Below are positions 1,561 to 58,300 of a DNA stretch of 64,000 nt, piece by piece. Position numbers and translations under genes: made by a program. Numbering within the stretch: the first letter of the stretch is position 1; the number at the start of each line of letters is the position of its first letter. The DNA is from Liolophura sinensis (Eukaryota; Mollusca; Polyplacophora; Chitonida; Chitonidae): assembly GCF_032854445.1 (NCBI RefSeq), contig NC_088304.1, positions 14,025,704 through 14,089,703 of the forward strand. The letters are read 5' to 3'. The notes under the pieces were generated by a model, which saw nothing but the letters and a program-made list of their open reading frames with translations, had not been told where the DNA came from and ran no database searches.

Positions 1561-1574
1561 ATGTCGACCTACCT

Positions 1575-3290: not shown

Positions 3291-3797
3291 CCACATATTG
3301 CAATGCGGGTTTTATTTGATGTCTCATTTCATGTTTAACGTAACCTTCATAACTCTTTAGACATATCTGAATGTTGGTTTTGGTTTGATTTTGCTTTTAT
3401 CAACCTTGGGATATATTACAATTTTAGTTTCAGCGCACTTGTAGTCATACCGTCATTGAGGTTTTGGTTTCAACTTCATTTAGATCATATAGCTTTTGTT
3501 GCAAAGGATATCTGAACTGTCCTCCCGTCAATGGCTCTGTTTGACATCACTTTAAACACTCTTTGTTTTGATTATTGTTAATAAACAGAATTTTTCAAGT
3601 GATCTTGCCTTCAGCGTTCATTGCAAAGGATTTCATAACATCACGTTAAACACTATTTTGGATAATATCACCACGTGTGTTTTTGCTGGGAATTTTGCTT
3701 TCAAGGTCCCCGTTCACCATACAACCAATTGTGATTTTCGTTGCTCAGGTGACCTTTTCCACACTGGACGGACGATCTGCATAGTAAACCATCAACC

Positions 3798-3905
3798 ATG
3801 AAGATCAAGAAGGTTCTGCTGACCATACTGGACATGAAGACGGTTATAATGTCCATCTTGACCCCAATTCTTCTTCTGCCCATTCTCTACGAAGTCGAGG
3901 GGGAT
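3798..3905 (+). CDS. SLC13: Gene A exon 1 (aa 1-36)
   Basis: The ATG at 3798 is chosen because it aligns with the gene B start and gives the usual short family N terminus before the first membrane segment (SILTPILLLPILYEVEGD). Donor gtaagt at 3906, phase 0. Two upstream sequences resemble the 5' flank of gene B exon 1 only weakly; no separate 5' UTR exon was identified. Confidence 0.9.
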
Positions 3906-6900
3906 GTAAGTTTAATTTCCATAAGCCTCATGGAATGGATCAAATCGATATGCTATAGCAAAGGACATACGGTATAGAGGGTAAAATCAGAACAGCGACG
4001 ACAATATGATAATTGCTAAATGGTCGCATGTAACCGGTGAAATACGGCCTCTTGTCAATTTACCTCATTTAGGGCTTTTATTCTGACTGTTTATGTACTA
4101 AATGATAAATCTATAAATGCCCCACAAAATGGCTAAAATGCTCGAATTGCATGACGACATCTCATTCAGTTCGAGTCTCTCTCGAACTAGGATATGTGAA
4201 GGTACATCCCTATTGAAACAATTACTTCAAAAGGGGTTTCAGTGGCAACCCCAAATGAAATAATATTGAAATATTTTTGGGGACCAGGGAATGGGCAAGG
4301 ATTAGAATATATGTAATACTGTCAAATATTTTTGGCCTACTTGAAGAACATAGCTCTGTGCCCAAAATTACGGGAAAAATAGCTATTTCCTATTATAATC
4401 CACCCTAGTTCTACTTGTTCAGGCAAAATATATATAAATATGAACTACCGTAAAGCAGGATTTTCAGTAATATTTAAGCCACCCCTCACCAATGCCACTA
4501 ATGCGTCGTGGAAAGGTCACCAACAGCTCAAAATATTTGTAGAAAATAAAACACTTTCTTATATTTTGAACACGTGATATTCTATCAGTTAGAGAGATAA
4601 TGCCTTTGAAATTATAATATTACAAAGGTGTGGAATATTTATATATAATTTATATATAATACCCCTGTTGAAGTAATTGTTTCAACAGGGGTAATTTATT
4701 TCAATAGGGGTTGCGACAAAGTTTGAACTGCGTGTACTGACAATAATCGGAACGCCCCAAATCCGCTTACTGCATTTTGCTGGTCTGTAATTCGAGCTTC
4801 CATTGTTTGTTGAAGTAATATTGTAAATTAAAAGAGCCATAGTCATGGTCAGAATTACAACATTATGACAGCCGAGTTACGCCCCTTTCTACCATGACAC
4901 GTGTGGCTATTTAGAAAGCAAGGAATTTTGAAATCTGTTCTTCCTTAATTCCTAAACTAGTTGGATCGATATGTAATACTTGGTATTTGAAGAATCATAG
5001 ACAAGTAACGTCTAATAAATTGAAATTAAACTCTACATTTTCCCTACCTAATTCTGCGTAAGGCATGGCGCAAGGGGACGTGTAAGTTGTTACTATTTTA
5101 CCATTCACATGAATATTTAGAATAAAATCCTAACTGAGATAATTCAGAAGAGTGCGCCTTTCACCGGTTACGTGTGACTATTTGCCAGCCATCACACTGT
5201 CGTCTCAGCTCTGGTTTTACTCTCTGTGTTGTACGTCCATCACACTGCCGTCTCAGCTCTGGTTTTACTCTCTGTGTTGTACGTCCATCACACTGCCGTC
5301 TCAGCTCTGGTTTTACTCTCTGTGTTGTACGTCCATCACACTGCCGTCTCAGCTCTGGTTTTACTCTCTGTGTTGTACGTCCATCACACTGCCGTCTCAG
5401 CTCTGGTTTTACTCTCTGTGTTGTACGTCCATCACACTGCCGTCTCAGCTCTGGTTTTACTCTCTGTGTTGTACGTCCATCACACTGCCGTCTCAGCTCT
5501 GGTTTTACTCTCTGTGTTGTACGTCCATCACACTGTCGTCTCAGCTCTGGTTTTACTCTCTGTGTTGTACGTCCATCACACTGCCGTCTCAGCTCTGGTT
5601 TTACTCTCTGTGTTGTACGTCCATCACACTGCCGTCTCAGCTCTGGTTTTACTCTCTGTGTTGTACGTCCATCACACTGCCGTCTCAGCTCTGGTTTTAC
5701 TCTCTGTGTTGTACGTCCATCACATTGTCGTCTCAGCTCTGGTTTTACTCTCTGTGTTGTACGTCCATCACACTGTCGTCTCAGCTCTGGTTTTACTTTC
5801 TGTGTTGTACGTCCATCACACTGCCGTCTCAGCTCTGGTTTTACTCTCTGTGTTGTACGTCCATCACACTGTCGTCTCAGCTCTGGTTTTACTCTCTGTG
5901 TTGTACGTCCATCACACTGCCGTCTCAGCTCTGGTTTTACTCTCTGTGTTGTACGTCCATCACACTGTCGTCTCAGCTCTGGTTTTACTCTCTGTGTTGT
6001 ACGTCCATCACACTGTCGTCTCAGCTCTGGTTTTACTCTCTATGCTGTACGTCCATCACACTGTCGTCTCAGCTCTGGTTTTACTCTCTGTGTTGTACGT
6101 CCATCACACTGTCGTCTCAGCTCTGGTTTTACTCTCTGTGTTGTACGTCCATCACACTGCCATCTCAGCTCTGGTTTTACTCTCTATGCTGTACATCCAT
6201 CACACTGTCGTCTCAGCTCTGGTTTTACTCTCCGTGTTGTACATCCATCACACTGTCGTCTCAGCTCTGGTTTTACTCTCCGTGCTGTACATCCATCACA
6301 CTGCCGTCTCAGCTCTGGTTTTACTCTCCGTGTTGTACGTCCATCACACTGTCGTCTCAGCTCTGGTTTTACTCTCTGTGTTGTACGTCCATCACACTGC
6401 CGTCTCATCTCTGGTTTTACTCTCTGTGTTGTACGTCCATCACACTGCCGTCTCAGCTTTGGCTTTACTCTCTATGCTGTACATCCATCACACTGCCGTC
6501 TCAGCTCTGGTTTTACTCTCTGTGTTGTACGTCCATCACACTGTCGTCTCAGCTCTGGTTTTACTTTCTATGCTGTACGTCCATCACACTGTCGTCTCAG
6601 CTCTGGTTGTACTCTCTATGCTGTACGTCCATCACACTGCCGTCTCAGCTCTGGTTTTACTCTCTGTATTGTACGCCCATCACACTGTCGTCTCATCTCT
6701 GGTTTTACTCTCTGTGCTGTAATCTTTCATGCTCATTTAAAAGCTTGTTTTATCACATTCATTTTTATACAGGCTTAAATCACACCAAATGTTTGTTTCC
6801 TACTGTTTTCTAATTAGCTATGATCTGGTGAATTTTTTGAGAGAGTTTGTTAACTGTATGACAATATCTCCTTCCAAAGGCCGGAAGATGTGGGTATGGC

Positions 6901-7664: not shown

Positions 7665-10600
7665 CAACAGGCTCCTCCTGTTATTTCTTTGTGAACATAA
7701 TTTATTAAGTATTTTTTTAAATCAGGACGATTGTCCCATTTAACGTTGTGAGAAAAAATTCCATGCCTTACTTATCTTTGTTTTTAGAACGCTGTGCCGT
7801 CAGAGGTGGTGCCCTTCATTCATTGTTGTAAAAATGTAGCAATTCTTGTGACGTAGACGATCAAATTAATGAACCATACCAAGTTGACGTCACGGCGTTC
7901 TAAAATCAAAGGGGACACAACTCATGTCATGTTTAACAAATTGTAGTCTTGTCCGAGTGCATCTGTCCAAACATAATCTACAAATAGGATAGACACCTAC
8001 AAAATGAACTGAGTGAGTGAGCGCTTGGGGTTTAACGTCGAACTGAACAATTTTTCAGTCATATGACGGCGAAGGGGTCATTAGAATGTATGTAATATGC
8101 CGCCTTGTTGCAGGACGGATTTCCACCGCTCTTTTATCTTGTGCTGTTTCACTGAGACGACTTAACGCAGGCAAGTGAGGCGCCCCGCCCGAGCCATTAT
8201 ACTGATACGGGTCAACCAGTCGTTGCACTATCCTCTTAATGCTGAACGCCCAGCGAGGACGTTACAACTTCCTCTTTTTTAAGGTATTAGGTGTGACCCG
8301 ACCCAGGATTAACTCTGGATCTACCGCTCCAGAAGCTGACGCGCTACCAACTGTGCTATCGGGGCCGGTCAAACTGATACAAAATTGTAACACAATCACT
8401 ACGAACCATGTATTTACGTTGATAAGCTTCAGTTTCGTGTAAAAAATCTTTGACTTCACCTTTAAACGGCACTCACATACATGACTATTTATTTATTTGA
8501 TTGATGTTTTACGCCGTGCTCAAGAATACTTAACTTACACAACGACGGCGAGTATTGTGGTCGGAGGAAACTGGGCAAAACCCTGGGGAAACCCATGATC
8601 ATCCATAGCCTGCTAGCAGATCTTCTCACGTACCTTCGGAGAGGAAGTCAGCACGAGCTCACAGGGTGACAGACTCTTGAGTCATGGCGCCACACTGGCG
8701 CGCTAATCACATCGGTCTCGGAGGCTTCCCTCAAATATATGACAGTCTATGCTTTGTTCCATTTCCACAGAGCCCATCCGTTACGCTTATTGGGATATTT
8801 GGCATTATTGCTGCCGTTGAGCGCTGGGGTCTTCACAATCGGATAGCGCTGGGAATCCTTAAACTTTTCGGAACAAAGCCACATTGGTTTGTATCAGTTA
8901 TTTTTTTATTTTTTGTTTGTTTGTTGTTTGACGCCATAACCGAGAAGTGTCCATTTATACGACGACGGAAGCTTGCAACAAGGTACACCTGAGGCGTAAA
9001 TCCAATAGCAGTAGTGCCTTGATTCATTCGGGGGCCTCCGTGGCTCAGTTGGTTAGCGCGCTAGCACAGCGTAATGACCCAGGAGTCTCTCACCGAGGCG
9101 GTCGCTGTGAGTTCAAGTCCAGCACATGTTGGCTTCCTCTCCGGCCGTACGTGGGAAGGTCCTCCAGCAACCTGCGGATGGTCGTGGGTTTCCGCCGGAC
9201 TCTGCCCGGTTTCCTCCCACCATAATGCTGGCCGCTGTCGCATAAGTGAAATATTCTTGAACACGGCGTAAAACACCGATCACAATAATCATATAAATAC
9301 CTTGATTCATTCCTATTAGTATTCATGACGTGGGGAAGCCTGGCAGCAACCTGCAGGTTGTCGTGATTTCCTCCCACCGGTTTCCTCCCACCATAATGCT
9401 GGCCACTGTCGTATAAGTGAAATATTCTTGAGTACGGCGTAAAACACCATTAGTTTTCTTGGTGTCAGATACGTATTAACTGATCTTTACAAAGCCATTT
9501 AAATATATTTGCGCCATTTATTAAACACTAATTGAGGTAAACTGACAAAAGGTTGTATTTCATCAATTACGTGCAAGTGACCATTTACCAATTATCACAC
9601 TGTAGTTCCTGCTCTGGTTCTACTGTGTATGCTGTAAGTTTTTTTTATCATGTAGTTTGTAAACAATAAGAATGCCTTACAAATGGCAGTAGGACTTATG
9701 CCTTATACCTTATAAATGGCAGTGTTACGAATTTGAACTTTGATATGGGATTCATGCCTGGAATATCCACTGTCTGTCCGGCATCATTGAAAACTGATGA
9801 CCGCTTCTCTCTTGTGTGTTACCGGCTTTAGTTCTCATTTGTATAATTTCTTACATACCTTGGTCTTTGGGAGCTAGTGTTAAACGTTGTTTTGGAAGTG
9901 GATATTCCGATTATCGACTTGGAACGCCTTTTACGGACTACGAATGGTATATGAATGTCGGACATGACGCTTATAGTTATGCCTTTTACCATATGAATGG
10001 CAGTGGGACTTATCCCTTATGCCTTATGAATGGCAGTAAGACTTACGCCTTATGCTTTATGAATGGCAGTAAGACTTATGCCTTATGAATGGCAGTGGGA
10101 CTTACGCCTTATGCCTTATGAATGGCAGAAGGACCCCACATGATACATCTATATACAAATTTCACCTGGTTACATATGCTAGAGAGGGTACAAACATGGA
10201 CGATTGCAATCTATGTCATGAAACATTTATGCAGAGACTTCTAAATCACATGTTTTCTGTTAAGCAACTGCATTCACAATTCCTTAAACTTGCCAAACAT
10301 ACCACCAGTAACAACTTACAACAGTCGTAACGTGGAAAATCTATAGCGCTATGCTTTGCAAGTACGTACCTAATTCTCGTGGATAGGGGATGTATAAACA
10401 TAGTTGCAATAAAATCATAAAAGACATGATATTTTATGTAACAAAAATCTGAACCTGTTTTAAATATTAAATGCTGTGGATTGCATACTGGATTTGACGC
10501 ATGACTTATGACACACGTATATCTTTCCGGGCCTCCGTTATCGAGGTGGTAAGCGTGATAGCGCGGCACAATGACCTCCCACCATAATGTTTTTTGAGTG

Positions 10601-15197: not shown

Positions 15198-18100
15198 ACC
15201 ACACCAAGTGTCTCCTCGTCTCCATATGAATGGAAAATCGCTAAGTACGACATAAAAACCCAGGGATACATACATACATGCATTCTTAAACATGTTGTTG
15301 TAGAAAGGAAGACGGAGGAAAATGAAAACAGCGAAGACGAGGAGAATGATTCGGGTGCAACTATTACGGAGTAAGATTCTTCTTCAGGATTGATTGCTTT
15401 ATATGGTCTCCTGACTTAGATTAACCTAATAAAGAGCGGAAAATATAGAAAACCACGATGAAATATTACCATTATTTTTTTTAATGAGATGAAATTTTTC
15501 AATTATGTAACAATTGATGAAGCGATATCATTATTTGTGAATTGATGAGATGTTACCAATATTTTAAAAAAGTGATTACATTCTGCTAATATTTGAAAAA
15601 ATAAACATGGACAATTGGCGAATATTTAAGAAAAATGATGAAACGTTGACCATATATTTTAGAACTGATTAAAGGTGACAAATTGTCGCCAATGATTGTT
15701 CAGTACGTGATATCAAGACATGACATTATGATTAACAGGTTCGCATATGTTATCATTTTAGAATGACAATCACCTCAGACATATACAAGCAGTGGCATGC
15801 CATAATGTGTGAAATAGAAACGAAATGCTGATGTGTAAATCTCTTGCCTACGACAAATACTTAGATATTAGGGCTTAAATACTACTCCATCAATGCTTTT
15901 ATGGATGCCGATTATGAATTTTTTTCTTACGATAGAAACATTGCGTTTGGCAAATAGCATCCCTTATATAAATATAAATGTAAGATATTTTAACATAAGA
16001 TTTCACAATATATTAATTTATAATACAATTATATATATATATATATACATGTATATATATATATATAATTGTATTATAAATTAATATATTGTGAAATCTT
16101 ATGTTAAAATATATATTTGTATTATAAATTAATATATTGTGAAATCTTATGTTAAATGTGCAAGTTAAGCACGGAGTGGACTGGTTCTCAGACTATAAGG
16201 TTTTATAAAGTTAGTCTGGACATAGAATTTTTATCGATATGTGGCAATTCTTAAACGAGTTAATGCACTGAAGGCAAGTCATGACAGACAAACGGACGGA
16301 CGGACGGACGGATGGACAATAATTAATATCCTCGCTATTTATGAAAGCGTGAGGTGAAAAAAACAGCCGACCCAAGTGAACTTGGATCTTTTCTTTTTTA
16401 AAGGGTATAATGTTGCAACTTTTTGCTTTACAGCAGTGAGCATCAGGACGAGGTCAAACGGTTGTACAAGGCGTTTAGTCTCTGCATTTCTCACGGCACT
16501 TCGATTGGCTCCACAACCATATTAACGGGACACCCGTCTAACTTTGTCTCTCTGGCGCTGATCGAGCAGTAAGTGAAAGCATACAAACGAATTAACAGAA
16601 GTATATAAACTGTAGAGGGATGAATGCCACTTTCCCATTATATGATTTCCAATCATAGTAGTGCGGTGAATACTGATTAGTATAATAAAATACCAAGATG
16701 TTTATTTTTTTGCTTCCAGGATTTATGAGCCTTACGGTATTTCTTCCAAGTTGTCGTTCGTCGGATGGCTTGTATACGCTGGTCCAATTTGTGTTATTCT
16801 AATATTCCTGGCTTGGGTTTGGTACGTCATCTTATTTCTTCGAGGAAAGTAAGTATTTTACAATGTAAATTCCGTTAGTCACTCTGTCGTCTTGCATGTT
16901 TTTCGGCCCTGTTAGTCACTTTTTCTTCTTGCGTGCATTTCGACGATTTTCACATTGTCTTCTTTCATGTACTTCGACCCTATTTGTCACATTGTCATCT
17001 TAAATGCATTTCGGCCCATTAAGTCACTTTGTATTTTTGCATGTAATTTTTATCCTGTTAGTCACATTGTTGTATTACATTAATTTAGGCCTTTATACTC
17101 ATTTTTGTATCCTGGCATGTAATTTTGACTTCTTGCATATAACATATAAATTTCGGCCCTGTTAGTCACTCTGTTTTCTTGCATGTAACATATAAATTTC
17201 GGCCTTGTTAGTCACTCTGTTTTCTTACATGTAACTTATAAATTTCGGCCCTGTTAGTCACTCTGTTTTCTTGCATGTATTTAATTTCGGTCCTGTTAGT
17301 CAATTTGTCTTGTTGGGTGCATTGCAATACTATTAGTCACATTGTCTTCTTGCGTGTAATTTCTGCCTTGTTAGTCACATTGTCGACTTGCATGTCTATA
17401 TCTGCCCTGTTAGTCAGCTTTTGTTCTTGCATGCTTTTCGGCCCTATATGTATTAGTCACTGTCTTCTTGCACGTAAATTTCTGTCCTTTCAGTCACTTT
17501 TTCTCCTTAAGTGTAAATTTTCCCCGTGTTAGTCACTTTGCCTTTTTGCTTGCATTTCGAACCTGTTGGTCACTCTGTCTTTTTGCATGTAACTTTCTGT
17601 CCTGTTAGTCACTTGGCCTTTTTGCTTGCACTTCGACCCTCTTAGTCACTATCTTTTTGCGTGTATTTCGGTCATATTAGTCACTCTGTCTTTTTGCATG
17701 TAACTTTCTGTCCTGTTAGTCACTTCGCCTTTTTGCTTGCATTTCGACCCTATTAGTTACTCTGTCTTTTTGAACGCTTTTCGGTCCTGTTAGTCACTCT
17801 GTCTTCTTGCACGCTTTTCGACCCTTTTGGTCACTATCTTTTTGCGTGTATTTCGGTCCTGTTAGTCACTCTGTGTTCTTGCATGTAACTTTCTGTCCTG
17901 TTAGTCACTTCACCTTTTTGCTTGCATTTCGACCCTGTTAGTCACTCTGTCTTTTTGAGCGTTTTTCGGTCCTGTTAGTCACTCTGTCTGACTTGCGTGT
18001 TTTTCGGTCGCATGTATTTCTGCCCTATTAGTCATTTTGTCTTCTTGCTTGTACTTATAGAGGTCTTTGCCGGAGGTCCAGAATGACCGCTGAGATGGAA

Positions 18101-31187: not shown

Positions 31188-31937
31188 TAAAACACCAAAA
31201 ACACGCCTTGCGGTTAAGTTTAAAGTCGGTACAGTGTTGTAACCAATGATAACCTACAACTACAAAGAGTAAAAAAGAAAAGAAAAATAGCCCCCCCCCA
31301 AAAAACCCCATCAAAGTTGTTTTAAAATCTCCATTCTTAAATGTGGTCCCTAAATTGTAATGCAAATTAAGCTCTTAAATATATGCATCAAATCATTTAA
31401 ATCCTGAGCGCTGATTCTATCCTGTGGTATGGAACAATTTCAGGCAAGCTTGAGTTCCCAGTTTCAAATACTTTGTTTTGCAAAACAGCATTATATATGT
31501 TGCCAGGCAGCCGAGCTTAGCGTTTTAGATTTATGCCCAAAATGGTTTTGTGCATGTAAGTCCCTTGGCAATTTGCATGATACGAAAGGTATACCCAATC
31601 AAATCCACGCCTACTGTGGTCGTCGTTGGAGTTCAGCCAAGGGACCTTGTGTCAATTAAACGTCCCATATGTGTTACCTATTCTAATTACCAATTTTTCA
31701 TTTTTTTCTTTGAGCTTCCATTTGCAATCTATGTTTGATCGAAACATTTGCTTTAAACTAGCAAAACAGTGCTAGACATGCTACACCAGAAAGAGGTCGA
31801 CATATGTAGACGTTTTCTCAGACTTACATGCACTCTACTAAGATGTCTGTAATATACAAATTTACAGGCAAACACTCGCACTCTTGTGACAGTTGCGAAA
31901 TGTCCCAACTCAGGCCGACTGATTCTGGGCAGGTAAG

Positions 31938-37281: not shown

Positions 37282-37389
37282 ATGAAGGTCAGGACGGTTC
37301 TATTGACTCTACTGGACATGAAGACGATTTTAATGGCAGTCTTCACCCCTATTCTACTGCTGCCTATTCTGTACGAAGTCGAGGGAGAT
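37282..37389 (+). CDS. SLC13: Gene B exon 1 (aa 1-36)
   Basis: Starts at ATG 37282, with donor gtaagt, phase 0. Encodes MKVRTVLLTLLDMKTILMAV, then TPILLLPILYEVEGD, nearly the same as gene A exon 1. Confidence 0.92.
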
Positions 37390-40300
37390 GTAAGTCTTTT
37401 TGTTGGGTTTTTTTTCAGGCAATCGGCCGGTGGAAATCGGTGGAAATGACCGTCAGCAATTCTGCGGATTGTCATGAACTTCTCCTGGACTATGTCTGGT
37501 TTCCTCCCACCATAATGCTGGCCGTCCTCGTATAAGTTAAATATTCATGAGTACGGCGTAAAACACTGATGGGATAAATAAAAAAAACATTGTGCGCCAT
37601 TAGTGTTCGATTAGTTTCCGTAAGTTGTTGTTACTGGCCTTTGACATAGCTGTACTCAATTTATTTATGTATTTATTTATTTATTTATTTCACGCAGCAT
37701 TCATAGATTTATGTTTCAACACAACATTCTGAATAATTCTAATGTAATGATCATCTAATAATTATCTATTAACATGGCTGCTTTTTTTTTTTTTACATAA
37801 TCCTGCTTAGTCCTAAACTGAAGTAAACTACCAAGAGACCTGATTTCACCGGTTACGTTCGACAATTTGCTAACTATCCCACGGTCGTTGCTGCACTAGT
37901 TTTACTCTGTACGCTGTATGTCTAACTGTATTTGATGGAATGATCTTTACACACTAATTTTTACAGTACTACTCGTTTCAAAAAAGTTTCTACAAAAACA
38001 ATGCGTGTCCCAAGAGAAGGCAAGAAGGATGTTTCTTTGCGACAAGATGACACAAAACTAAGGCTTGAAGTCAAAGCCCTGTCATTCTTCTGCCATTCTT
38101 CTCTGGCAGAGCCGTCTTTGTAATGCCGCATTTTCTGCAGTTTTTGTTTAAGGCCACCAAGGTTTGCGTTAAACTGCATATATCCTTAAAAGAGTATTTC
38201 ATCAAAATATAAGATATCTGTACATCTAGGATACTTGACAGAAGCAGTGGGTTTCCGGGTGTTTTTCATAAACCGAACTGGCTTTGCAGATTTTTTGTCC
38301 TTCACACTAAATTAATTTTCTCTTGAACAATTTTATCCCATGTTTTGGATTGTTGGTGGTAACTTCAGAGTTCATATGTAGCCCTACTTCATACATTTAT
38401 TTAGAAAGGCCTCCGTGGCCGAGGTGGTTAGCGTTCCAGCGGCCGGAACCTCTCACCAATGCGGTCGCTCTGGGATTAGGCCCAGATCAGTCCTCTCAGG
38501 TCGTATGAGAGAAGATCTGCAAGGTCTGGATGGTCGCGTGTTTCATTCCAGCTCTGCCCGGTTTTCTCCCACCATAATACTGGCCGCCGCCGTATAAGGG
38601 AAACATTATTGACGGTGCGACATAAAACACCAATCAAATTAATATATAGATACATTTCTTTAGGCATACACCCACATGCTTTGTATGTCGGGGAAACTGC
38701 AACTAACCAAACTGTTTCATTTCTTATTACGTTTTTTTTTGAAGCCTGGGCGATGTGCATACGGCGTTGCCATCTTGATTGTGTTCTGGGTTTTCGAGGT
38801 TCTGCCACTTCCGGTGACGTCATTGCTTCCTGTCTTCCTGTTTCCGGCCCTGGGTGTGCTAACAACTAGCCAAGTCTGTGCAGAGTTTATTAAGGTAGAT
38901 GTATATCTGACAAGACATTAGCTGGCCTCGAACTCTCACCTTCACAATGTTAAATATTCTCTTTCTTGAACTTAGCAGGATGACCCTTGACTAAATTTTA
39001 CAATGCAAGTTGTTCGACCCAGTTACAGGTTAGTCTTAACCAGGTCAACCAGTGAAAGTTCTCAGAATATGTTCAGTCACATGCTGTTCCTACAGAAACC
39101 CACGCTGTGTGGTTGTGCGACGTACAGTATACATTAGACATGCGCAGTGGGGAACAAGGTTTGCCTCCGAGCTGAGGAGTGAAGGGGCATTTACTGGGTA
39201 ATACTTCTACAAAGACATTACAGGTTGATTGATACACCATGAAATTTTACACTGCTATTTTACATCTAGTTAAAAAATATCACAAGATTGACTGTTTTGG
39301 GTGTAACTGAACACTTTTTGCCCAATGTTACTATCCACCCAATTGGTGGTTACTAAGGTGACAAAGTGCTGTGACTTCACAGTTCAAAAAACGATGATGA
39401 TGCTAGGTTGATAGGTTGTAAAGTAAAGCTCAGGCTGCAAGTGGTGGTATACCATGGTACCACGTGAGGGGAAAGAGGCCAATAATTCCGGAATTGAAGT
39501 TGATACATTTACTACATATATAGTTTAGAAAATCAATGCGATTGTGTGACTTAAAACCGGATAATGAGGAGGCCATTCCATCTAATATTTCATTGGATAA
39601 AACATGCTACATGTATTTGAATTGAACTGTAATATTTTACAACAGCTGCTAGATTCAACCCTGATGAAATGAGTGAATGAGACCTCGGGAATAGAAGAAT
39701 GCTAAATCCCAGGTTCATGTCTGACAATACTCATTCTGCTGTGGATGGGAAGTAATCGTGACGAACTCGCATGGTGTCTTAGATGCAGACGGTTACCTCC
39801 CTTCCAGATGCATGCACTGTAATTTGCCTCAAGCACGACATGTGTGACCGTTTGTTTCGAATTGTTTCCAGCTAGATTAAATTAAAATGACCTTGATATT
39901 TGATGCTACAATTAATAAAGCCACCTTGTTTTTTGTTGATACGGCGGGAAGAAATCTGTTTATACACGTCTTGTATAGATTGGGACAGATTGGGATTTTT
40001 GACGATTTGCTTCATAGCTACCATAGCTACCAAATCTGTAGATAATCCCGCTTAACAAAGCGTTAGGGGACGGATACGCATTCGTGTTGATTACCTCAAC
40101 TTGTTGCTTTTATGAACAGTTGTAATCAAAGCGCGACTTAGATACCTGTGTTTGTATTGAAAAGTATTGACGAACTACGAGTTTGAATTTTGAATCCGAT
40201 GTCACGTCTAGAAGATCACTGATTCTCTCTTGCATATGGATCACTGATTCTGTCTTGCATGTGGATCACTGATTCTGTGTTGCATGTGGATCACTGATCT

Positions 40301-43300
40301 TTCTTACACGTGGATCAGTGATTCTCTCTAGCATGAGGATCACTGATATTCTCTTGCACGAGGATCAGTGGTTCTCTCTTGCATATGATCAGCTTTATTC
40401 ACTATTTATATCTTATTTATTATATATCTCTTTGGTAACTGGTGCTTCTGGTAGTTTAGAAATGATTTGGCTAGCAGTTATCTACTTAGGACGTCTTTAT
40501 GTTTTACGGGTAGTATACGAATGTTTGCCTTGACGCTTAGATCAGGTAGTAAGGCTTATCACTTCGTTCAGTGGTCGACATTCAACATATCTGTTTTGAT
40601 TGCAGAACTGCGGCCGATTCCACAAAACCATTTCTGACTTCAGTCAAAAACTGAAATTTTTGGCTTTGCAAATCACCCCATCGGTATTAGCTAAAGACAA
40701 AATTGTGCAAATTTTTACTTCCAGAACCAAAAAGTACGCATTGTAAAGAGGTTTTAAATTTTGGCTTAAGTTAGAAATGGCTTTGTGAAATCGGCCCCAG
40801 GTGGTAGGGGGCGTGTAATTTGCTACTATTTATACATTTACATGGACATGCAGTTAGAATAAAACCCTAACTGAGGCAACTTGACCAGAGGTCGTATTTC
40901 ACCGGTTGCGTGTGACCATTTGTCAGCCATCACGCTATCGTCGCTGCTCTGGTTTTTCTCTCTAAGGTGTACGTCTATCACACTATCGTCGCTGCTCTTG
41001 TTTTTCTCTTTAAGCTGTACGTCTTAATTATATATATCTTATGTGAAAAGATGATTCCGGCAAATCGGCCGTGACTTGTTCGCCACATGTTCGAAAGATT
41101 CGGATAACTATGTGCTGCTTTTAAGGTGCTTATTTTATGTGCGTAAATGTTTTCGATACAAGCACAAGTGCGACTATCGTTTACGCACAAAAGAACAATT
41201 TCGTACATTTCGCACAATTTTGACATTTTATGTCAATAGTACAATATTTTCAGTTCTATAAATTTAGACTACCCCGTGCGTTTGACATTGCTGTTCGACT
41301 ATTGAAAGATCATGTCTTTCATGATGTTAAGATTGTAGGTAAACCTGTACAGATTTATCTCTATAGATTTGTCTACAATGTAGGTGCCACACAAATGTCT
41401 TCAAAATATTTAGCTTTGTCTACAATAGATAAGCCTAAAACTAATGTTTCGAAGATAATTTTATATGTTTACATTGTAGCCTTCAAACAAACGTCTTCAG
41501 AAACGCTTAGCTTTGATTTTCAGCTTGAGTCCATATTTATTTCTTTCATAAGTGTTTTCCGCCGTACTGAAGAATATTTCACTTATTTGACAGCGGCCAC
41601 CTTTATTGTGGGAGGAAACCAGGGAGAGTCCTCGAGAAACCCACAACCATCTGCAGTCTACAATTTATAGGCCCCAAAATATCTGTCTAACTCTTAGATA
41701 TGCCCAGGGTTCAGAAAAATGTCTACATAGACGCTTGGATATATGTGCAATATGGTCAGACAAATGTTTACAGAACTCTTGGGTTCGCCTACAATATAAC
41801 CGTCAGACAAATGTCTACAGAACGCTTGGCATAACTTACATTCTAGGCGTCGAGTAAATGAGTACAGACCCTGAGGTTTGTCTAAAATGTATGTAGCTCT
41901 AATCGTTACGCATCTGTAATGAAAACCTGTTGCAGTCCATGAATTATAATCACTAGTATAATTAACAATTTCCTTTGCGATGTAGAGCCAATCACTCACA
42001 ATAAAGTGTTAAAGATTCTGATTCCATCAATCAAAATCATGAAAATATTTACACCTTCAGTATTCTGAGTTGCAAAGTCCATATATTGTTATCATTGGAC
42101 TATTTAGCACTTTATTCTGTGTTGTAGAGTCCATCAATCACAATTATCAGGATATTTAAGACTTTATTCTGTGTTGTAGAGCCCATCAGTCACAATGAGC
42201 AGGATGTTTAACACGTTATCCTGTGTTAAAGAGTCCATCAATCACAATCTTCGGGATGTTTAGCACTTTATCCTGGGCTGTAGAGTCCATCAGTCACAAT
42301 CTTCGGGATGTTTAGCACTTTATCCTGGACTGTAGAGTCCATCAGTCACAATCAGCAGGATGTTTAACACTTTATCCTGGGCTGTAGAGTCTATCAGTCA
42401 CAATCATCGGGATATTTAACACTTTATCCTGTGTTGTAGAGTCCATCAGTCACAATCATCGGGATATTTAGCACTTTATTCTGTGTTGTAGAGTCCATCA
42501 GTCCCAATCATCGGGATATTTAACACTTTATTCTGTGTTGTAGAGTCCATCAATCACAATCATCGGGATATTTAACACTTTATTCTGTGTTGTAGAGTCC
42601 ATCAATCACAATCATCGGGATATTTAACACTTTATTCTGTGTTGTAAATTCATCAATCACAATCATCAGGATATTTAACATTTTATTCTGTGTTGTAGAG
42701 TTTATCAATCACAATCATCGGGATATTTAACACTTTATTCTGTGTTGTAGATCCATCAATCACAATTATCAGGATATTTAAGACTTTATTCTGTGTTGTA
42801 GAGCCCATCAGTCACAATGAGCAGGATGTTTAACACTTTATCCTGTGTTAAAGAGTCCATCAATCACAACCATCGGGATATTTAACACTTTATTCTGTGT
42901 TGTAGAGTCCATCAATCACAATCATCGGGATGTTTAGCACTTTATTCTGTGTTGTAGATCCATCAATCACAATTATCAGGATATTTAAGACTTTATTCTG
43001 TGTTGTAGAGCCCATCAGTCACAATGAGCAGGATGTTTAACACTTTATCCTGTGTTAAAGAGTCCATCAATCACAACCATCGGGATATTTAACACTTTAT
43101 TCTGTGTTGTAGAGTCCACCAATCACAATCATCGGGATATTTAAAACTTTATCCTGTGTTGTAGAGTCCATCAATCACAATTATCTGGAAGTTTAGCATT
43201 TCATTTTGTGTTGTAGAGTCCATCAATCACAATCTTCGGGATGTTTAGCACTTTATCCTGTGTTGTAGAGTCCATCAGTCACAATCATCGGGATATTTAG

Positions 43301-46300
43301 TACTTTATTCTGTGTTGTAGAGTCCATCAATCACAATTATCGGGATATTTAACACTTTATTCTGTGTTGTAGAGTCCATCAATCACAATCATCGGGATAT
43401 TTAACACTTTATTCTGTGTTGTAGAGTCCATCAATCACAATCATCGGGATATTTAACACTTTATTCTGTGTTGTAAATTCATCAATCACAATCATCAGGA
43501 TATTTAACATTTTATTCTGTGTTGTAGAGTTTATCAATCACAATCATCGGGATATTTAACACTTTATTCTGTGTTGTAGATCCATCAATCACAATTATCA
43601 GGATATTTAAGACTTTATTCTGTGTTGTAGAGCCCATCAGTCACAATGAGCAGGATGTTTAACACTTTATCCTGTGTTAAAGAGTCCATCAATCACAACC
43701 ATCGGGATATTTAACACTTTATTCTGTGTTGTAGAGTCCATCAATCACAATCATCGGGATGTTTAGCACTTTATTCTGTGTTGTAGATCCATCAATCACA
43801 ATTATCAGGATATTTAAGACTTTATTCTGTGTTGTAGAGCCCATCAGTCACAATGAGCAGGATGTTTAACACTTTATCCTGTGTTAAAGAGTCCATCAAT
43901 CACAACCATCGGGATATTTAACACTTTATTCTGTGTTGTAGAGTCCACCAATCACAATCATCGGGATATTTAAAACTTTATCCTGTGTTGTAGAGTCCAT
44001 CAATCACAATTATCTGGAAGTTTAGCATTTTATTTTGTGTTGTAGAGTCCATCAATCACAATCTTCGGGATGTTTAGCACTTTATCCTGTGTTGTAGAGT
44101 CCACCAATCACAATCATCGGGATATTTAAAACTTTATCCTGTGTTGTAGAGTCCATCAATCACAATTATCTGGAAGTTTAGCATTTTATTTTGTGTTGTA
44201 GAGTCCATCAATCACAATCTTCGGGATGTTTAGCACTTTATCCTGTGTTGTAGAGTCCATCAGTCACAATCATCGGGATGTTTAGCACTTTATCCTGTGT
44301 TGTAGAGTCCATCAGTCACAATCATCGGGATATTTAGTACTTTATTCTGTGTTGTAAATTCATCAATCACAATCATCAGGATATGTAACATTTTATCCTG
44401 TGTTGTAGAGTCCATCAATCACAATCATCAGGATGTTTAACACTTTTTTTTGTGTTGTAGAGTCCATCAATCACAATCATCGGGATATTTAACACTTTAT
44501 TCCGTGTTGTAGATCCATCAATCACAATTATCAGGATATTTAAGACTTTATTCTGTGTTGTAGAGCCCATCAGTCACAATGAGCAGGATGTTTAACACTT
44601 TATCCTGTGTTAAAGAGTCCATCAATCACAACCATCGGGATATTTAACACTTTATTCTGTGTTGTAGAGTCCACCAATCACAATCATCGGGATATTTAAA
44701 ACTTTATTCTGTGTTGTAGAGTCCATCAATCACAATTATCTGGAAGTTTAGCATTTTATTTTGTGTTGTAGAGTCCATCAATCACAATCTTCGGGATGTT
44801 TAGCACTTTATCCTGTGTTGTAGAGTCCATCAGTCACAATCATCGGGATGTTTAGCACTTTATCCTGTGTTGTAGAGTCCATCAGTCACAATCATCGGGA
44901 TATTTAGTACTTTATTCTGTGTTGTAAATTCATCAATCACAATCATCAGGATATTTAACATTTTATCCTGTGTTGTAGAGTCCATCAATCACAATCATCA
45001 GGATGTTTAACACTTTATTCTGTGTTGTAGAGTCCATCAATCACAATCATCGGGATATTTAACACTTTATTCTGTGTTGTAGATCCATCATTCACAATTA
45101 TCAGGATATTTAAGACTTTATTCTGTGTTGTAGAGCCCATCAGTCACAATGAGCAGGATGTTTAACCCTTTATCCTGTGTTAAAGAGTCCATCAATCACA
45201 ACCATCGGGATATTTAACACTTTATTCTGTGTTGTAGAGTCCACCAATCACAATCATCGGGATATTTAAAACTTTATCCTGTGTTGTAGAGTCCATCAAT
45301 CACAATTATCTGGAAGTTTAGCATTTTATTTTGTGTTGTAGAGTCCATCAATCACAATCTTCGGGATGTTTAGCACTTTATCCTGTGTTGTAGAGTCCAC
45401 CAATCACAATCATCGGGATATTTAGTACTTTATTCTGTGTTGTAGAGTCCATCAATCACAATCATCAGGATATTTAACACTTTATTCCGTGTTGTAGAGT
45501 TCATCAATCACAATCATCGGGATATTTAACACTTTATTCTGTGTTGTAAATTCATCAATCACAATCATCAGGATATTTAACATTTTATTCTGTGTTGTAG
45601 AGTCCATCAATCACAATCATCGGGATATTTAACACTTTATTCTGTGTTGTAGAGTCCATCAATCACAATCATCAGGATGTTTAGCACTTTATCCTGTGTT
45701 GTAGAGTTTATCAATCACAATCATCGGGATATTTAACACTTTATTCCGTGTTGTAGAGTCCATCAATCACAACCATCGGGATATTTAACACTTTATTCCG
45801 TGTTGTAGAGTCCATCAATCACAATTATCGGGATATTTAACACTTTATTCTGTGTTGTAGAGTCCATCAATCACAATCATCGGGATATTTAACACTTTAT
45901 TCTGTGTTGTAGAGTCCATCAATCACAATCATCAGGATGTTTAACACTTTATTCTGTGTTGTAGAGTCCATCAATCACAATCATCGGGATATTTAACACT
46001 TTATTCTGTGTTGTAGAGTCCAACAATAACAATCATTGGGGTATTCAGCATCGTGTCTGCCGCTGAGCGTTGGGGTCTTCATAAACGGATGGCGTTGAGA
46101 ATACTCACCCTGTTCGGAACAAAGCCTCACTGGTTTGTACCGGTTCACGTGAAAAAGTTTCATTTCTTTAAAATGAAAGAAAACTGAAACATGACGAAAT
46201 GTCAGATTAACGGCTGAAAACCACTACTAAAAACGTGTCGAAAACCTGTCATTTATTTAAAAAAAAAAAGAGAATCGAATGCATTCAAATCCTATGGTGA

Positions 46301-49300
46301 GCTCTATGAACCTATGTTTAGTTGGTGTTTAGATACTCTGACGCCACAAGAAGGTTTTCCCACTCTAAACACATCTTTCATTTTTGGAATAGCACTTAGT
46401 TCCCACAAGATTGCAGAGAATCTTGTCACTGGCGATATGGCAATAGGCAAACTGACAAAAGGCCGTATTTCACTAATAGCCCGCTATCATACTGTCGTCG
46501 GTGATCTGGTTGTACTCTCCATGCTATGGGTCTTTTACTACTTCATTAAAGACAAGACAACGGATGTTAAAACCAAGGCGACAACACAGTGTGATCGATA
46601 GTTGGCAAATGATCACACGTAACCAAATGAAATTAGATGAATTTTCAACTTACTGTAAGAAAACATAATATGATGTTAAATGTCACATATTTGTATTTTT
46701 TAGAGTGTATGTTTTCACTTTGTGTTATGCAGGCTGATATTTGGGATGTTGGTGTGCACATCGATTCTCTCTGTATTCATAACGGCCGGTGTCGCTGTTT
46801 TGATGATACCGATTGTCCACAGCGTTGTGGACAAACTGAAGAACGTGGAACACACTAAAGGTAACAGTCCGATATTGTTATGACGTTAGATTTGACAAAA
46901 AGTTTGTTCTCCAATGCAGTGACAAATTTTCACGGCGATCACATCAGGCTTTGAAATGAAGCTCGCTCTGACGTTGGTTTGGGACCATCTTTGGCCGCGC
47001 CAAATCAAACGTCAGAGCAATCTCGGACTCTGAACGTGTTGGTTCTCTTGGTTGTTCCATGGTTATAAATTGAAAGATGGACGTTCATGCTTATAAATGA
47101 CAGTCCATTAATCTTTATATTCGTCTAATTCTGTGAGAATTGTGGTTTTGATGGTGACTTTCGAAAAGTCGCGTAACTTCAACATGTTCTTTGTATGCTA
47201 CTTTCCGTTTCAGATATAGAGATGCAAAGTGCCGAGAACAATTCTGAACATGGGACAGAAATCAGCGACGATGGGAAAATAAAGTATATTGACATTTAAC
47301 CATTCAGGCCAATACATAAAGCCATTTTACTTTCGGAAAAGGTTTAGAGTCCCAAACAGTTGAGCGCCAGTTGAGCGCCCAAACTAATCAAGCTGTATTA
47401 AAACTAACAAGTAAATTGAATAAAAGTATAATGTTATGAAGGTTTTCTTAAAGTTATTTTTCATTCACAGACTTCAAAGCTCTCAGAAAGGCCTATCATT
47501 TTTAATTACATTTTATGTCAATTCTTTATGCACTGTACCATGTCATTTTAAAATGTGGGATCGGAACGTAAAATTTTTTACTTGATATAGCCCAGCTATT
47601 TAGCCTGCACTGAATTTTTTCACCACAATTTCTCCATTTCATCTTAATAATATTCCTGAATGTGTCCTTAAAACGCCATTCAAAAAAAAAGGAAATTAAT
47701 TAAATTAATTTATTTTTCAAACTTAGAGTAAAATACAACCCATGCTTTTTTCATCCCACCCCCAGTGGGTCAAATTAAAAATCTGAAGAGTGGCCCTTAT
47801 GACGGCCTAAATTTCAGGCAAATCTCATTTTGCCACATGTTTACTTTTTAGCAGTCAGTTCATCCTTACCTAATACAATCACTTCTGATATAAGTACTAA
47901 AAAAGTAACTACGGAAAGTTTCATTTTCAAGCAGGAACGTAATATTTAAAGCGTGATCATTACTGATTATAATTTTTGAGGTGTCGTATAAGTTGCCTGT
48001 AAAGCCTTTTCACTTATCAACGTGCACCTGTCGTGTGATGAATAGTACATATAACATTGTTTCCTTGTTATTTCAGCCGGGAACATCGAGATGAGGTTAA
48101 CCGCCTGTTTAAAGCATTCAGCCTCTGCATCTGTTACGGGACGGCAATCGGCTCCTCGGTCCTACTAACAGGAGGTCCACCCAATTTGGTAACCTTCAGC
48201 TTGACAGAAGAGTAAGTGATTGTATGTTAAATATAATGGCAACACAGCAGTTTGAGTAATTCCAGATCAGTGGCGTCTAATAAATTACTATTAACGCCCT
48301 ATCTTTTTTCACAATTCTGCTTAAGATATGCATGGTGCTAGGGGGCGTGCATTTTGTTACTATTTATGCATTTACATGAAAAAGTTAGAATAAAACCCTG
48401 AGTGAGGTAAATTGAAAAACGGCTGTATTTCACCGGTTACCTGACACCATTTGCCGACTATCACACTATCATAGCTATCATTCTCTATGCTATACATCTT
48501 CAATTATAGCCTTTCTGTTTATCAAATGTAACAATAACATAGTATTTTCTATGACCAGTGATACGCAGTAACATTCCGTATCTTACTTTGCCTTGGTTTT
48601 AAATCTCTTTTTGATTTGATTTAACCATCATATTGCTTTGGTATAAATCATTCTTGTCAACGCTCTCACGTTTTGAGTCAGCACTCCTATTCAGCCTTGG
48701 ACTGACTCATTTCAATGCGCTTGAACTTACTTTACCTCAGTTTTATGTCTCATTTTACCTGTATTTTATATCTCTCTTTGCCTCTGTTTTATATCTCAAT
48801 TTGCCTCTATTTTATGTCTCAACTTGCCTCTATTTATATCTCAGTTTGCCTCTATTTAATATCTCTCTTTGCCTCTATTTTATATCTCAATTTTGCCTCT
48901 GTTTTATATCTCAGTTTGTCCCTATTTTATGTCTCAATTGGCCTCTGTTTATATCTCAATTGGCCTCTATTTTATATCTCAATTTGCCTCTGTTTTATAT
49001 CTCAGTTTGCCTCTGTTTTATATCTCAATTTGCCTCTATTTTACCTCTGTGTTATATCTCAAGTTGGTGTATCCCTCTTTCCTTCGGTTTGAATCACAGT
49101 GCTGTGGTATCACTCGTTCTCGTCTAAGCTTTCTTGTTTTGAGTTAACTCTCCCATACAGGCCTTGGTTGAACTCATTTTACTGTGCTTGAACTCGCTTT
49201 ACCTAAGTTTTATGTCTTACGTTGCCTTGAATTTATATCTCATTTTGCTCCGGTTTGTCCCCCTTTCCTTCGGTTTGAATCAATGTGCTTTGGTATAGCT

Positions 49301-55300: not shown

Positions 55301-58300
55301 TTTCTCGCTTATCACCTGGCTATCACCCTTGCTATCTTATAGATCCCCCGGGCTGTGCCCGGTTTCCTCCCACCATAATGCTGGCAGCCGTCGTATAAGT
55401 GAAATATTCTTGAGTACGGCGTAAAACACCAATCAAATAAATAAATAAATAAATAAATACAATGACTGGTCGTAGGGCCTTAATACATGCAAATTCATAA
55501 ATTCATGCAACAAGCAACCTGCGGATGCTCGTGAGTTTCCCCAGGGCTCTGCCCGGTTTCATCCCACTATAACACTGGCCGCCGTCGTATAAGTGAAATA
55601 TTCTTGAGTACGGAGTAAAACGCCAATCAAATAAATAAATAAATATCTTATAGATTCATACAGTAAAGAGTAAAGTAGAAATTAGAATAAAATTATACAA
55701 AAGGCCATAATTATTGTATTCATCATGACGGTGAAATCTCGCAGGACTTTTTGTTACATTTAACTGTGGAATAAACTACAAGAGGCGGTATTTTACCGAT
55801 GATACGTGTAAGCATTTACCAAGTATCAAACTGTCGTCATTACCGTGGATTTACTCTCTATACTGTAGTGTTTTATATTAAGTGTGTATGCCAAATTTAT
55901 AGAGGTCCACCTAAATGTTTGCCAGATTGATAGAGGTCTACCTAAATGTTTGCCAGATTGATAGAGGTCCACCTAGATGTTTGCCAAATTGATAGAGGTC
56001 CTAAATGTTTGCCAAATTGATAGAGGTCCTAAATGTTTGCCAAATTGATAGAGGTCCACCTAGATGTTTGCCAAATTGATAGAGGTCCACCTAAATGTTT
56101 GCCATATCGATAGAGGTCCACCTAGATGTTTGCCAAATTGATAGAGGTCCACCTAGATGTTTGCCAAATTGATAGAGGTCCTAAATGTTTGCCAAATTCA
56201 CAGAGGCCCACCTAAATGTTTGCCAAATTCACAGAGGTCCACCTAAATGTTTGCCAAATTCACAGAGGTCCACCTAAATGTTTGCCAGATGGATAGAGGT
56301 TCACCTAAATGTTCGCCAAATTGATAGAGGTCCACCTAAATGGCCATACGAGGGCTAATGACCTATTAAAGACACCGATAACAGCGAACAAGGGAACCAC
56401 GAAATTTGCCATTATCGCTTAGCTATAATAATTAATATTACCTAAAAAAATAGTGAACAAATAACAAATAAATAAATAAAGAAAGAAAATCAAATTTTCT
56501 TCAAATTTAGCACTGTATTTATTTCAGGCGATACTCGTGAATCTCGATCCATTGGCGTTCATCTTCCCGATGGCTTTGTCAGCGAAGTGTGCCTTCATGA
56601 TGCCAATTGCCAGCCCGCCAAACGCCATTGCTTTTTCATTGGGTGCGCTACAGGTGAAAGATATGGTAAGTGTTGACAAGTTTTCAGGGTTGTACAGTGT
56701 GAGTAAGTGTTGACAAGTTTTCAGTGTGCACAGTGTGTGGTAAGTGTTGACAAGTTTTTAGTGTGCGCAGTGTGTGGTAAGTGTTGACAAGTTTTCAGCG
56801 TGCACAGTGCGTGGTAAGTATTGACAAGTTTTCAGTGTGGGTTAAGTGCAACAGATAACACGGCGCGTTGTGCCCGCACACCAGCAAATGTTATGTTAAA
56901 GCGAAATGCTCAATTCCTTCGCCGTTGTCGTGCATACCCATGGTCAATGAAATAATGACGCTGACGGTGTAATGCATGGAATAATGCCACTGATAATGTG
57001 TTAACTGATGAAATAATGCCGCTAGCGCTGACAGTGTTATAACTGATGAAATAATGTGCTAACTGATGAAATAATGCCGCTAGCGCTGACAGTGTTATAA
57101 CTGCTGAAATAATGTGGCTAATAGTGTGTTATCAGATACAATAATGCCACTGATAATGTGCTAACTGATGAAATAATGTCACTAGCTCTGATAGTGTTAT
57201 AATTGATGAAATAATGTGGCTAATAGTGTTATCTGATGAAAAAATACCACTGACAATGTGCTAACTGTTGAAATAACATCGCCGACTGTGTGTTTAAGGG
57301 TAAAATAATGCCGCTGACAGGAGACTAATTCGTGAAATAATAGCACCGACAATAGACTGAGGGATTTTTTTATTCACAATGGTCCATAGTGTTGAAAGCA
57401 AACTTGACATGAGGTTGTTCTAAAACAAGTTAAAGATGATGACAGAGTTTCCTGCAATTTCGCCTATTTTTATTACCATTTTAAGGCTCTCGGTTATTTG
57501 GACATGCTCAATGCATGTTATGTACAAAATATGTGAAGGAACACCATGGGCTGACAATGGAGTTAGTTATTATTCATGTATTGCCAAAATAGTAAATATC
57601 ACGCCTTTCCCTTTTATGATGAAAAAATAATTCACTTATCTATTTGTTTGTTTATTTATTTATATATTTATTTGATCGGTGTTTTGTGCCGTACTCAAAA
57701 TATTTAAGTTACACGACGGCGGCAGGCGTTGTGGTGGGAGGAAACCGGGCAGAGCCTTGGTGAAATCCACCACCATCTGAAGGTTTACGATGAAAGCGGT
57801 GATCTATATTTCACACCATATGTGTTTTACAACATGTCCTGTTACACTTCTCATGTTTCCTTTCTGTTATTACATTTCAGTTATTACGCCTCTGTTATTT
57901 CACGGCTGGGTAAACACTGACGTTATATTCACAATTTAATGTACTTTATTTACACAAGACTTTAATTAAATTATAAATTGTGACAGTTGAGTAACAACGA
58001 CATTTCTTTCTTGCACACTAAAAGGTATAAGCTACGCAGATGTAGAAGGGATGTGGCGGATTTCCATTTTTTAGCTGTGCGTTTTTTTTATATTTTCGCA
58101 GTCTGAGTTTTTATTTTTATTTTAAGCAGACTCACAAAAAGAATAAGAACTCCCAGAAAAAGAGATCGGGTTGGAGTTTTTCTTTTGTTTGAGACGAAGA
58201 AAAAAAGAAAAGAAAAGCTGCCATAAAATATCTCGAGAATCGCGATAATAAGCCAATCGAATTACGTTTTGCTTCGCGATTTTGTTGAAACACTCATGTA

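What the first reader, a model, noticed from the sequence alone, without database searches (positions are those of the whole stretch)
41985..46132. A 4-kb satellite made of the gene's own exon 3 acceptor
The 52-bp unit is the exon 3 acceptor of gene B plus the first 11 or so codons. The last unit reads straight into the real exon at 46017, and the unit would encode SPSITIIGIF against SPTITIIGVF in the exon. About 77 near-identical decoy acceptors, each with a pyrimidine tract and AG, precede the true one. I know of no described satellite formed from a functional splice acceptor in this way, and its effect on splicing is an open question.
Basis: partly seen in the sequence, partly recalled or inferred. 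Interest (0 to 1): 0.87.

Follow-up and report, generated by a model that had tools for sequence, protein, structure and literature searches.

The report
Splice-acceptor minisatellite before chiton gene exon
In a chiton, the end of an intron and the start of the next exon of a transporter gene have been copied about 75 times in a row, leaving about 70 equally good false splice sites directly before the real one; this is a very large example of a rare known kind of repeat, described in amphioxus, and it recurs in sister genes.

Summary
Window 42101-46045 is a 52-bp array (76 units; a degenerate left edge reaches about 41932). Its last unit reads into exon 3 (46017-46132) of an intact 14-exon SLC13 gene of the chiton Liolophura sinensis. 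The unit is gene B's own exon 3 acceptor: over 34 exonic bases it matches B best (28; paralogs A 24, C 22, D 18, E 13). The one answered genome search with the array found it only here; the other match was gene A's exon 3. Seventy of 75 decoys keep the AG, 34 of these 70 score at least as well as the true acceptor, and 17 of 75 equal it over -20..+3. Of 230 AGs tested, only the true one keeps the frame open.

New here are phylum, size (76 units against 6 in BflGb6) and recurrence: paralog E has 60 units of 60 bp at its exon 4 acceptor, the last 20 decoys in frame; paralog I has an acceptor and a donor array; gene B also a donor array.

Likely: local minisatellite birth, tolerated because exon definition picks the acceptor next to the only donor. 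That step is inferred; public RNA-seq could test it.

The parts
42101..45989 (+). 75 decoy units of 51-52 bp, each about 27 bp of intron 3' end (branch-point-like TTTAAC, pyrimidine-rich tract, AG) plus about 25 bp of exon 3 start; 70 of 75 keep the AG
   Evidence: TRF, wrap-around segmentation, unit census
41932..42100 (+). degenerate left edge of the array
   Evidence: segments 41880-42020 and 41940-42101 align to the unit with scores 74 and 116 against shuffle maxima 46 and 50; further left nothing exceeds shuffles
45990..46041 (+). terminal unit: its 27 intronic bases equal the array consensus, its exonic part is the real start of exon 3
46017..46132 (+). true exon 3 of SLC13 gene B (phase 0, 116 bp, donor GTTTGT)
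   Evidence: Pfam CitMHS/Na_sulph_symp, E 1e-4 and 2e-4, spliced model, RefSeq P0001, only open acceptor of 230 AGs
38745..38894 (+). exon 2 of gene B, intact
37282..37389 (+). exon 1 of gene B, intact
8771..8886 (+). single-copy exon 3 of tandem paralog gene A; its intron end (8735-8758) aligns 18 of 24 bases with the unit's intron part
   Evidence: 5 of 5000 dinucleotide shuffles reach the score, but 22 of 2376 window segments do too
56664..56839 (+). second boundary array in gene B: 37 bp x 4.8, five consecutive GTAAGT donors starting with the true donor of exon 13 (exon 56528-56665)
   Evidence: (score 59, maximum of 300 shuffles 24)
31900..31932 (+). first exon of the RefSeq model of gene B (MSQLRPTDSGQ), joined in that model straight to exon 3, leaving out exons 1 and 2

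Best explanation
It is a giant acceptor 'mirage': a minisatellite born by tandem duplication of a 52-bp segment that straddles the intron 2 / exon 3 boundary of SLC13 gene B, then grown and homogenised by slippage, unequal exchange or conversion (an identical 692-bp block is repeated 829 bp apart). Shown: origin from this gene's own exon 3, intact gene, 70 decoy acceptors that score like real ones, no donor-like site in the array as good as the weakest real donor of genes B and C, loss of the open frame for every AG tested but the true one. Inferred: the array is tolerated because exon 3 is recognised across the exon, the acceptor nearest the only donor wins, and mis-spliced products are lost, so it is mostly a passenger with some splicing cost.
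For: Segmentation and census. Unit nearest to gene B exon 3, 28/34, against A 24, C 22, D 18, E 13, with two unit+B shared derived sites (9, 31) that hold with D and E added. Array found only here by the one answered genome search with it, and in 264 kb its exon part matches only A and C exon 3 outside the array. Gene intact over 14 exons; B against C dN 0.30, dS saturated. 70 decoys median 8.29 against 8.51 for the true acceptor; 34 of 70 at or above it, 17 equal; 1.5% of 4000 random AGs reach it. Best donor-like site in the array 4.3, weakest real donor 5.0 (donors scored by the profile they trained). Of 230 AGs only 46017 keeps the frame open. Other SLC13 paralogs show the same kind of event. 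Amphioxus mirages were reported not to disturb splicing.
Against: No RNA evidence was available. RefSeq's model of gene B omits exons 1 and 2, and its model of paralog E reads array units as coding, which could mean that decoys do disturb splicing, or only that gene prediction fails in repeats. The intron-side homology to gene A rests on 24 bases, and 22 of 2376 other window segments score as well. A short direct repeat flanking the boundary in A and C (8/10) could be the seed, but 5 of 24 other acceptor places have 8/10 matches too. A smaller acceptor profile rates the gene B exon 3 acceptor only at the lower quartile.
Confidence: 0.82

Rival explanations
1. The decoys are used often enough to matter: they lower or redirect the output of gene B (premature stops, skipping of exons 1-2, or a shift to a promoter near 31900), so the array acts as a splicing rheostat.
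For: 70 of 75 decoys keep the AG and score like real acceptors, 17 of 75 equal the true one over -20..+3. RefSeq's gene B model skips exons 1 and 2 and joins 31900-31932, which has a strong donor (11.8), to exon 3. RefSeq's model of paralog E strings array units into the coding sequence. RefSeq's gene A model skips exon 7, the exon before an array-filled intron.
Against: Gene models in repeats are unreliable and I could not see their read support; the gene A model also reads through the exon 13 donor and lacks exon 14, where no splice-site array lies. Paralog C has a complete model although an unrelated array ends 68 bp before its exon 3. Mirages in amphioxus were reported not to yield aberrant mRNA.
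Confidence: 0.25
2. The array is part of a dispersed genome-wide satellite that happens to abut exon 3.
For: A 48-bp array in gene A intron 1 (5189-6721) shares a 21-bp core with the unit (score 30; 0 of 1500 shuffles reach it, maximum 25) and belongs to a family dispersed over the genome (360 first-look candidates, 40 scored).
Against: The consensus of the 12 dispersed family pieces that I fetched scores 16 against the unit (shuffle mean 13.0) and the single pieces 16-25, so the strong core match is particular to that array. The 52-bp unit itself was found only at this locus (lower bound). The unit encodes exon 3 residues.
Confidence: 0.02
3. Gene B is a decaying pseudogene, so the array is simply under no constraint.
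For: The first SNT motif of SLC13 is replaced in this gene (ITAGVAVL); RefSeq's model is N-terminally short.
Against: All 14 exons are open with GT-AG borders; dN 0.30 with dS saturated against paralog C. The motif is also changed in paralogs A, C, D and E, so it is a property of this subfamily.
Confidence: 0.05
4. Copy number or the array itself is an assembly artefact.
For: Tandem arrays are a classic source of error; coverage is only 14x.
Against: PacBio HiFi reads of mean 8.3 kb (PMC11068029, passages) are twice the array length; 38 distinct units among 76, and a degenerate left edge, are not what a stutter would make. I could not look at reads.
Confidence: 0.03

Closest known systems
Mirages of amphioxus: globin BflGb6 and BflGb9, Adh3, troponin C, PGBD5 (PMC3087553 and PMC3902484, passages read; the original Adh paper PMC117041 is not held)
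   Same: Minisatellite-like tandem duplication of an intron-exon boundary; BflGb6 repeats the 3' end of an intron plus the 5' part of the next exon, as here; many but not all units keep the splice signal; the authentic boundary stands beside the duplicates.
   Different: Mollusc instead of cephalochordate; 76 units against 6 and 3 in the two BflGb6 haplotypes (the copy number in Adh3 I did not see); unit of 52 bp against 150-160 bp in BflGb6, but within the 10-72 bp given for Adh3; no RT-PCR evidence here; several sister genes affected, up to 60 units.
Human CBS 31-bp VNTR c.1444_1467+7 (16-21 copies) (PMC2630376, passages read)
   Same: A VNTR whose name gives a unit of 24 exonic plus 7 intronic bases, i.e. 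spanning an exon-intron border.
   Different: It repeats a donor side and is short (about 0.6 kb); the chiton array repeats an acceptor and is 4 kb.
CBS 844ins68, subject of a paper on 3' splice site choice (title seen in the reference list of PMC2630376; that it duplicates the intron 7/exon 8 boundary is recalled)
   Same: A duplicated acceptor with competition between two 3' splice sites.
   Different: One duplication, polymorphic in humans; not an array.
Internal tandem repeats at exon-intron boundaries of human segmental-duplication genes (PMC2812944, passages read), and intron gain by tandem duplication in a potato gene (PMC4974935, title and abstract start in a listing only)
   Same: Tandem repeats at boundaries that alter or create introns.
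   Different: Reported for recently duplicated human genes and one potato gene; from what I saw, not large arrays of a working acceptor.

Membership tests
mirage (minisatellite-like tandem duplication of an intron-exon boundary) | tandem repeats whose unit spans the boundary of an intron and an exon | tested here: met
   unit = about 27 bp intron end + about 25 bp exon start; terminal unit runs into exon 3; score 113 against shuffle maximum 27
mirage (minisatellite-like tandem duplication of an intron-exon boundary) | derived from the host gene's own boundary | tested here: met
   nearest to gene B exon 3 among the five paralogs compared, 28/34
mirage (minisatellite-like tandem duplication of an intron-exon boundary) | many, not all, units keep AG/GT signals | tested here: met
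   71 of 76 units with AG, the true one included
mirage (minisatellite-like tandem duplication of an intron-exon boundary) | concerted evolution inside the cluster, boundary units excluded | tested here: met
   identical 692-bp block 829 bp apart; diverged left edge; exon part of the terminal unit not homogenised (6 of 34 differ, none of 27 intronic; P 0.024 if spread at random). Against: no overall gradient of divergence along the array (Spearman P 0.11)
mirage (minisatellite-like tandem duplication of an intron-exon boundary) | regular splicing not disturbed | not testable with these tools
   no RNA-seq reads available; RefSeq models are ambiguous
mirage (minisatellite-like tandem duplication of an intron-exon boundary) | length instability between haplotypes or somatic cells | not testable with these tools
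   one assembly only, no reads
dispersed genome-wide satellite | unit present at many unrelated loci | tested here: not met
   array found only at this locus, the other match being gene A exon 3 (counts are lower bounds and very common words are skipped; the exhaustive pattern search did not complete); the dispersed 48-bp family is not close by consensus

The most novel reading that the evidence does not exclude
In this chiton, splice boundaries of the SLC13 family are repeatedly seized by expanding minisatellites, and the decoy acceptors are really used. In paralog E the unit is 60 bp, a multiple of three, and the last 20 decoys in a row keep the frame open, so decoy choice would insert a variable number of a 20-residue hydrophobic repeat into the transporter, much as the RefSeq model depicts. 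In gene B every decoy breaks the frame and would tune output down. Mirages would then be a working source of splicing and protein variation in a second animal phylum.
Probability: 0.17. Interest if true: 0.88.

Novelty: new member of a known kind. Interest (0 to 1): 0.62.

Why it matters
It gives a natural series of about 70 near-identical acceptors, 17 of them identical to the true one over -20..+3, that differ mainly in distance from one donor. It thus makes a long-standing question, how the spliceosome picks one of several equal 3' splice sites (exon definition, proximity, scanning), directly testable in public RNA-seq. It also takes mirages, seen by me in print only for amphioxus, into a mollusc, at far larger size than BflGb6 and in several sister genes, and shows contrasting cases: gene B, where any decoy breaks the protein, and paralog E, where the nearest 20 decoys would add in-frame repeats.

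Tried and rejected
Dispersed-satellite origin: the 48-bp array 5189-6721 shares a 21-bp core with the unit (0 of 1500 shuffles), but the consensus of 12 fetched family pieces does not (score 16; single pieces 16-25). The two copies at 40929-41024 look like the same family.

RNA structure: folding of 45782-46132 is no better than shuffles (z -0.33; 37 of 100 shuffles fold as well).

Enrichment of arrays at exon boundaries: not found. In genes A, B, C arrays touch 4 of 84 boundaries; for the 14 arrays with their middle inside the genes the count is 2 against 12.5 expected by random placement (P 0.005 for so few), i.e. depletion (exon coordinates there were partly approximate).

Microhomology seed: ATATTT-like direct repeats flank the boundary in A and C (8/10), but 5 of 24 other places reach 8/10; in that of 13 acceptor coordinates of A and 8 of 13 of C were not preceded by AG, i.e. 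off by some bases. Not significant.

Ancestral state frozen in the unit: with A and C as outgroups three exon B sites looked B-derived; adding D and E leaves only site 25 (Val/Ile) clean, sites 7 and 30 are ambiguous. I dropped the stronger claim.

Paralog C's 34-bp array, ending 68 bp before its exon 3, is not made of the acceptor (score 10, shuffle mean 11.7).

Acceptor strength depends on the profile: 36 acceptors of A, B and C give 8.5 for gene B exon 3 (leave-one-out median 6.9); 25 of B and C give 5.3 (median 7.5, lower quartile 5.3). 'Average to weakish' is the fair reading.

Paralogs seen but not fetched: places near C10:4.75-4.88 Mb and 36.588 Mb. A Conus gene-structure paper that held four search terms (PMC3862624, passages) speaks of intronic microsatellites, not of boundary arrays.
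Full report
WHAT IS THERE. The window lies at G000:C10:14025704-14089703 of a 609,464,459-base, 632-contig assembly. Size and scaffold number match the published Liolophura assembly (609.5 Mb, 632 scaffolds, PacBio HiFi 14x, mean read 8.3 kb; PMC11068029, passages), since renamed L. sinensis (PMC12441733, whole text). The best protein match of gene B is an L. sinensis RefSeq entry on a 36.6-Mb sequence. The 52-bp array spans 42101-46045 and was segmented into 75 units plus a terminal one; degenerate units reach left to about 41932.

THE GENE. Gene B has 14 exons, 37282-58700, all GT-AG, open over 564 aa. Exons 2 and 3 match neighbouring parts of the SLC13 Pfam profile, each weakly because they are short. 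Gene A lies upstream in the window and gene C starts about 84 kb upstream of B. B against C: dN 0.30, dS saturated, so the coding sequence has been constrained.

ORIGIN OF THE UNIT. About 27 bp of intron end and about 25 bp of exon start form the unit. Over 34 exonic bases that can be aligned, the unit matches B at 28, A at 24, C at 22, D at 18, E at 13. Unit and B share derived states at sites 9 and 31 whichever outgroup is used; site 25 is a B-only change (Val for Ile) that the unit consensus does not carry. Sites 7 and 30, which look B-derived against A and C, are shared by D and E and so prove nothing. The one answered genome search with the array end plus exon 3 as query gave 37 matches: 36 in this array (the first includes the exon) and one elsewhere, gene A's exon 3, aligned from 18 bases inside the exon onward (counts are lower bounds). 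In 264 kb around the locus the exon part matches only A and C exon 3 outside the array. Gene A's single-copy intron end aligns with the unit's intron end at 18 of 24 bases; 5 of 5000 dinucleotide shuffles, but also 22 of 2376 window segments, do as well, so this part is weak.

DECOYS. 71 of 76 units have AG at the acceptor position (70 of the 75 decoys); 16 of 75 equal the true site over all 27 intronic bases and 17 of 75 over -20..+3. With a profile from 36 acceptors of the three genes, the true site scores 8.51, the 70 AG-bearing decoys have median 8.29, 34 of 70 are at or above the true site, and all 70 exceed the lower quartile of real acceptors; 1.5% of 4000 random AGs reach the true score. 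The acceptor signal alone therefore does not single out the true one. The best donor-like site in the array (4.3) is below the weakest of 26 real donors (5.0), so decoys probably pair only with the exon 3 donor. Of 230 AGs from 41900 to 46018 only 46017 keeps the frame open from exon 1 to exon 4: decoy use would truncate the protein.

ARRAY DYNAMICS. 38 distinct units among 76; a 692-bp block at 42510 is identical to one at 43339. The terminal unit agrees with the consensus at all 27 intronic positions and differs at 6 of 34 exonic ones (P 0.024 if spread evenly), as if homogenisation runs up to the splice site and selection guards the exon. There is no significant gradient of divergence along the array.

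RECURRENCE. In 264 kb, arrays cover 12.2% of sequence (55 merged arrays), yet exon boundaries are avoided: 2 touched by the 14 arrays inside genes A, B and C against 12.5 expected. Against that background I looked at nine SLC13 paralogs (A-I; other places listed were not fetched, and D-I were annotated only by protein matches). Arrays whose unit holds a splice boundary: gene B exon 3 acceptor; gene B exon 13 donor (37 bp x 4.8, five GTAAGT in a row); paralog E exon 4 acceptor (60 bp x 60.3, running into the true exon 4; 60 units with the true one, 55 with AG); paralog I exon 4 acceptor (126 bp x 6.5) and exon 6 donor (78 bp x 4.7). Gene C has an array over its last codons and stop (32 bp). Paralogs D, F, G and H showed no array within 60 bp of an exon match. 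In paralog E the unit length is a multiple of three and the last 20 decoys all stay in frame (21 of 71 AGs, the true one included); 10 decoys are identical to its true site over -20..+3 and 26 of 54 score as well or better.

WHAT ANNOTATION SAYS. RefSeq's gene B protein starts at an exon at 31900-31932 and goes straight to exon 3, leaving out intact exons 1 and 2. RefSeq's paralog E protein (691 aa) has 155 residues between FGTKPQW and MSAGVAV, where the single-copy reading has 15; the excess includes array units. RefSeq's gene A protein skips intact exon 7, which stands before an intron filled by a 37-bp array, but it also fails at exons 13-14, where no splice-site array lies. Either arrays confuse prediction or decoys really disturb splicing; I cannot separate these without reads.

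HOW IT WORKS, AND WHAT IT IS. The best-supported account is local minisatellite birth across an acceptor followed by turnover, tolerated because exon definition prefers the acceptor next to the sole donor. This is the kind called mirage in amphioxus, where BflGb6 repeats an intron 3' end plus exon 5' part and RT-PCR suggested normal splicing (PMC3087553, passages; PMC3902484, passages). Searches for such arrays, also in molluscs or as duplicated acceptors, showed me no mollusc case; I saw mostly titles and abstract starts (15 of 52 papers), opened the one Conus paper listed (passages), and most subscription papers are not in the library. So: a new member of a known kind, in a new phylum as far as I could see, unusually large and recurrent.

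Noticed in passing
L042-L044 (G000:C10:35706900-35720000), E-local 1090-4715: Paralog E carries its own 60-bp x 60 array made of its exon 4 acceptor; the last 20 decoys are in frame and the RefSeq model P0121 reads array units as protein.
   Followed up: partly
L050 reversed, 1982-2804 and 4320-4677 (G000:C8:40054501-40064000): Paralog I has an exon 4 acceptor array (126 bp x 6.5) and an exon 6 donor array (78 bp x 4.7).
   Followed up: partly
16874-18006: A 37-bp x 30 array fills most of gene A intron 7 and resembles the pyrimidine tract before the exon 8 acceptor (score 48, maximum of 300 shuffles 25); RefSeq's gene A model skips exon 7, the exon before it.
   Followed up: partly
window coordinates -31218 to -30688 (fetched flank, L015): A 32-bp array begins inside the last coding exon of gene C and repeats the last codons and stop codon; another array starts at 26105, three bases behind gene A's stop.
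   Followed up: partly
5189-6721 and 40929-41024: 48-bp minisatellite; the first array belongs to a family dispersed over many contigs (360 first-look candidates, 40 scored), perhaps carried by a mobile element.
   Followed up: partly
46733-46860 (exon 4 of gene B): The first SNT motif of SLC13 transporters is replaced (FITAGVAVLMIPI) in gene B and also changed in paralogs A, C, D and E, while F, G, H and I keep SNT; a subfamily with a changed substrate or sodium site is possible.
   Followed up: no
L041/L045 (paralog D): Paralog D lacks nine residues in exon 3 and shows a frame change near exon 12; it may be a decaying copy.
   Followed up: no
window and 100 kb on either side: Minisatellite arrays cover 12.2% of the 264 kb, yet avoid exon boundaries of genes A, B and C.
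   Followed up: partly
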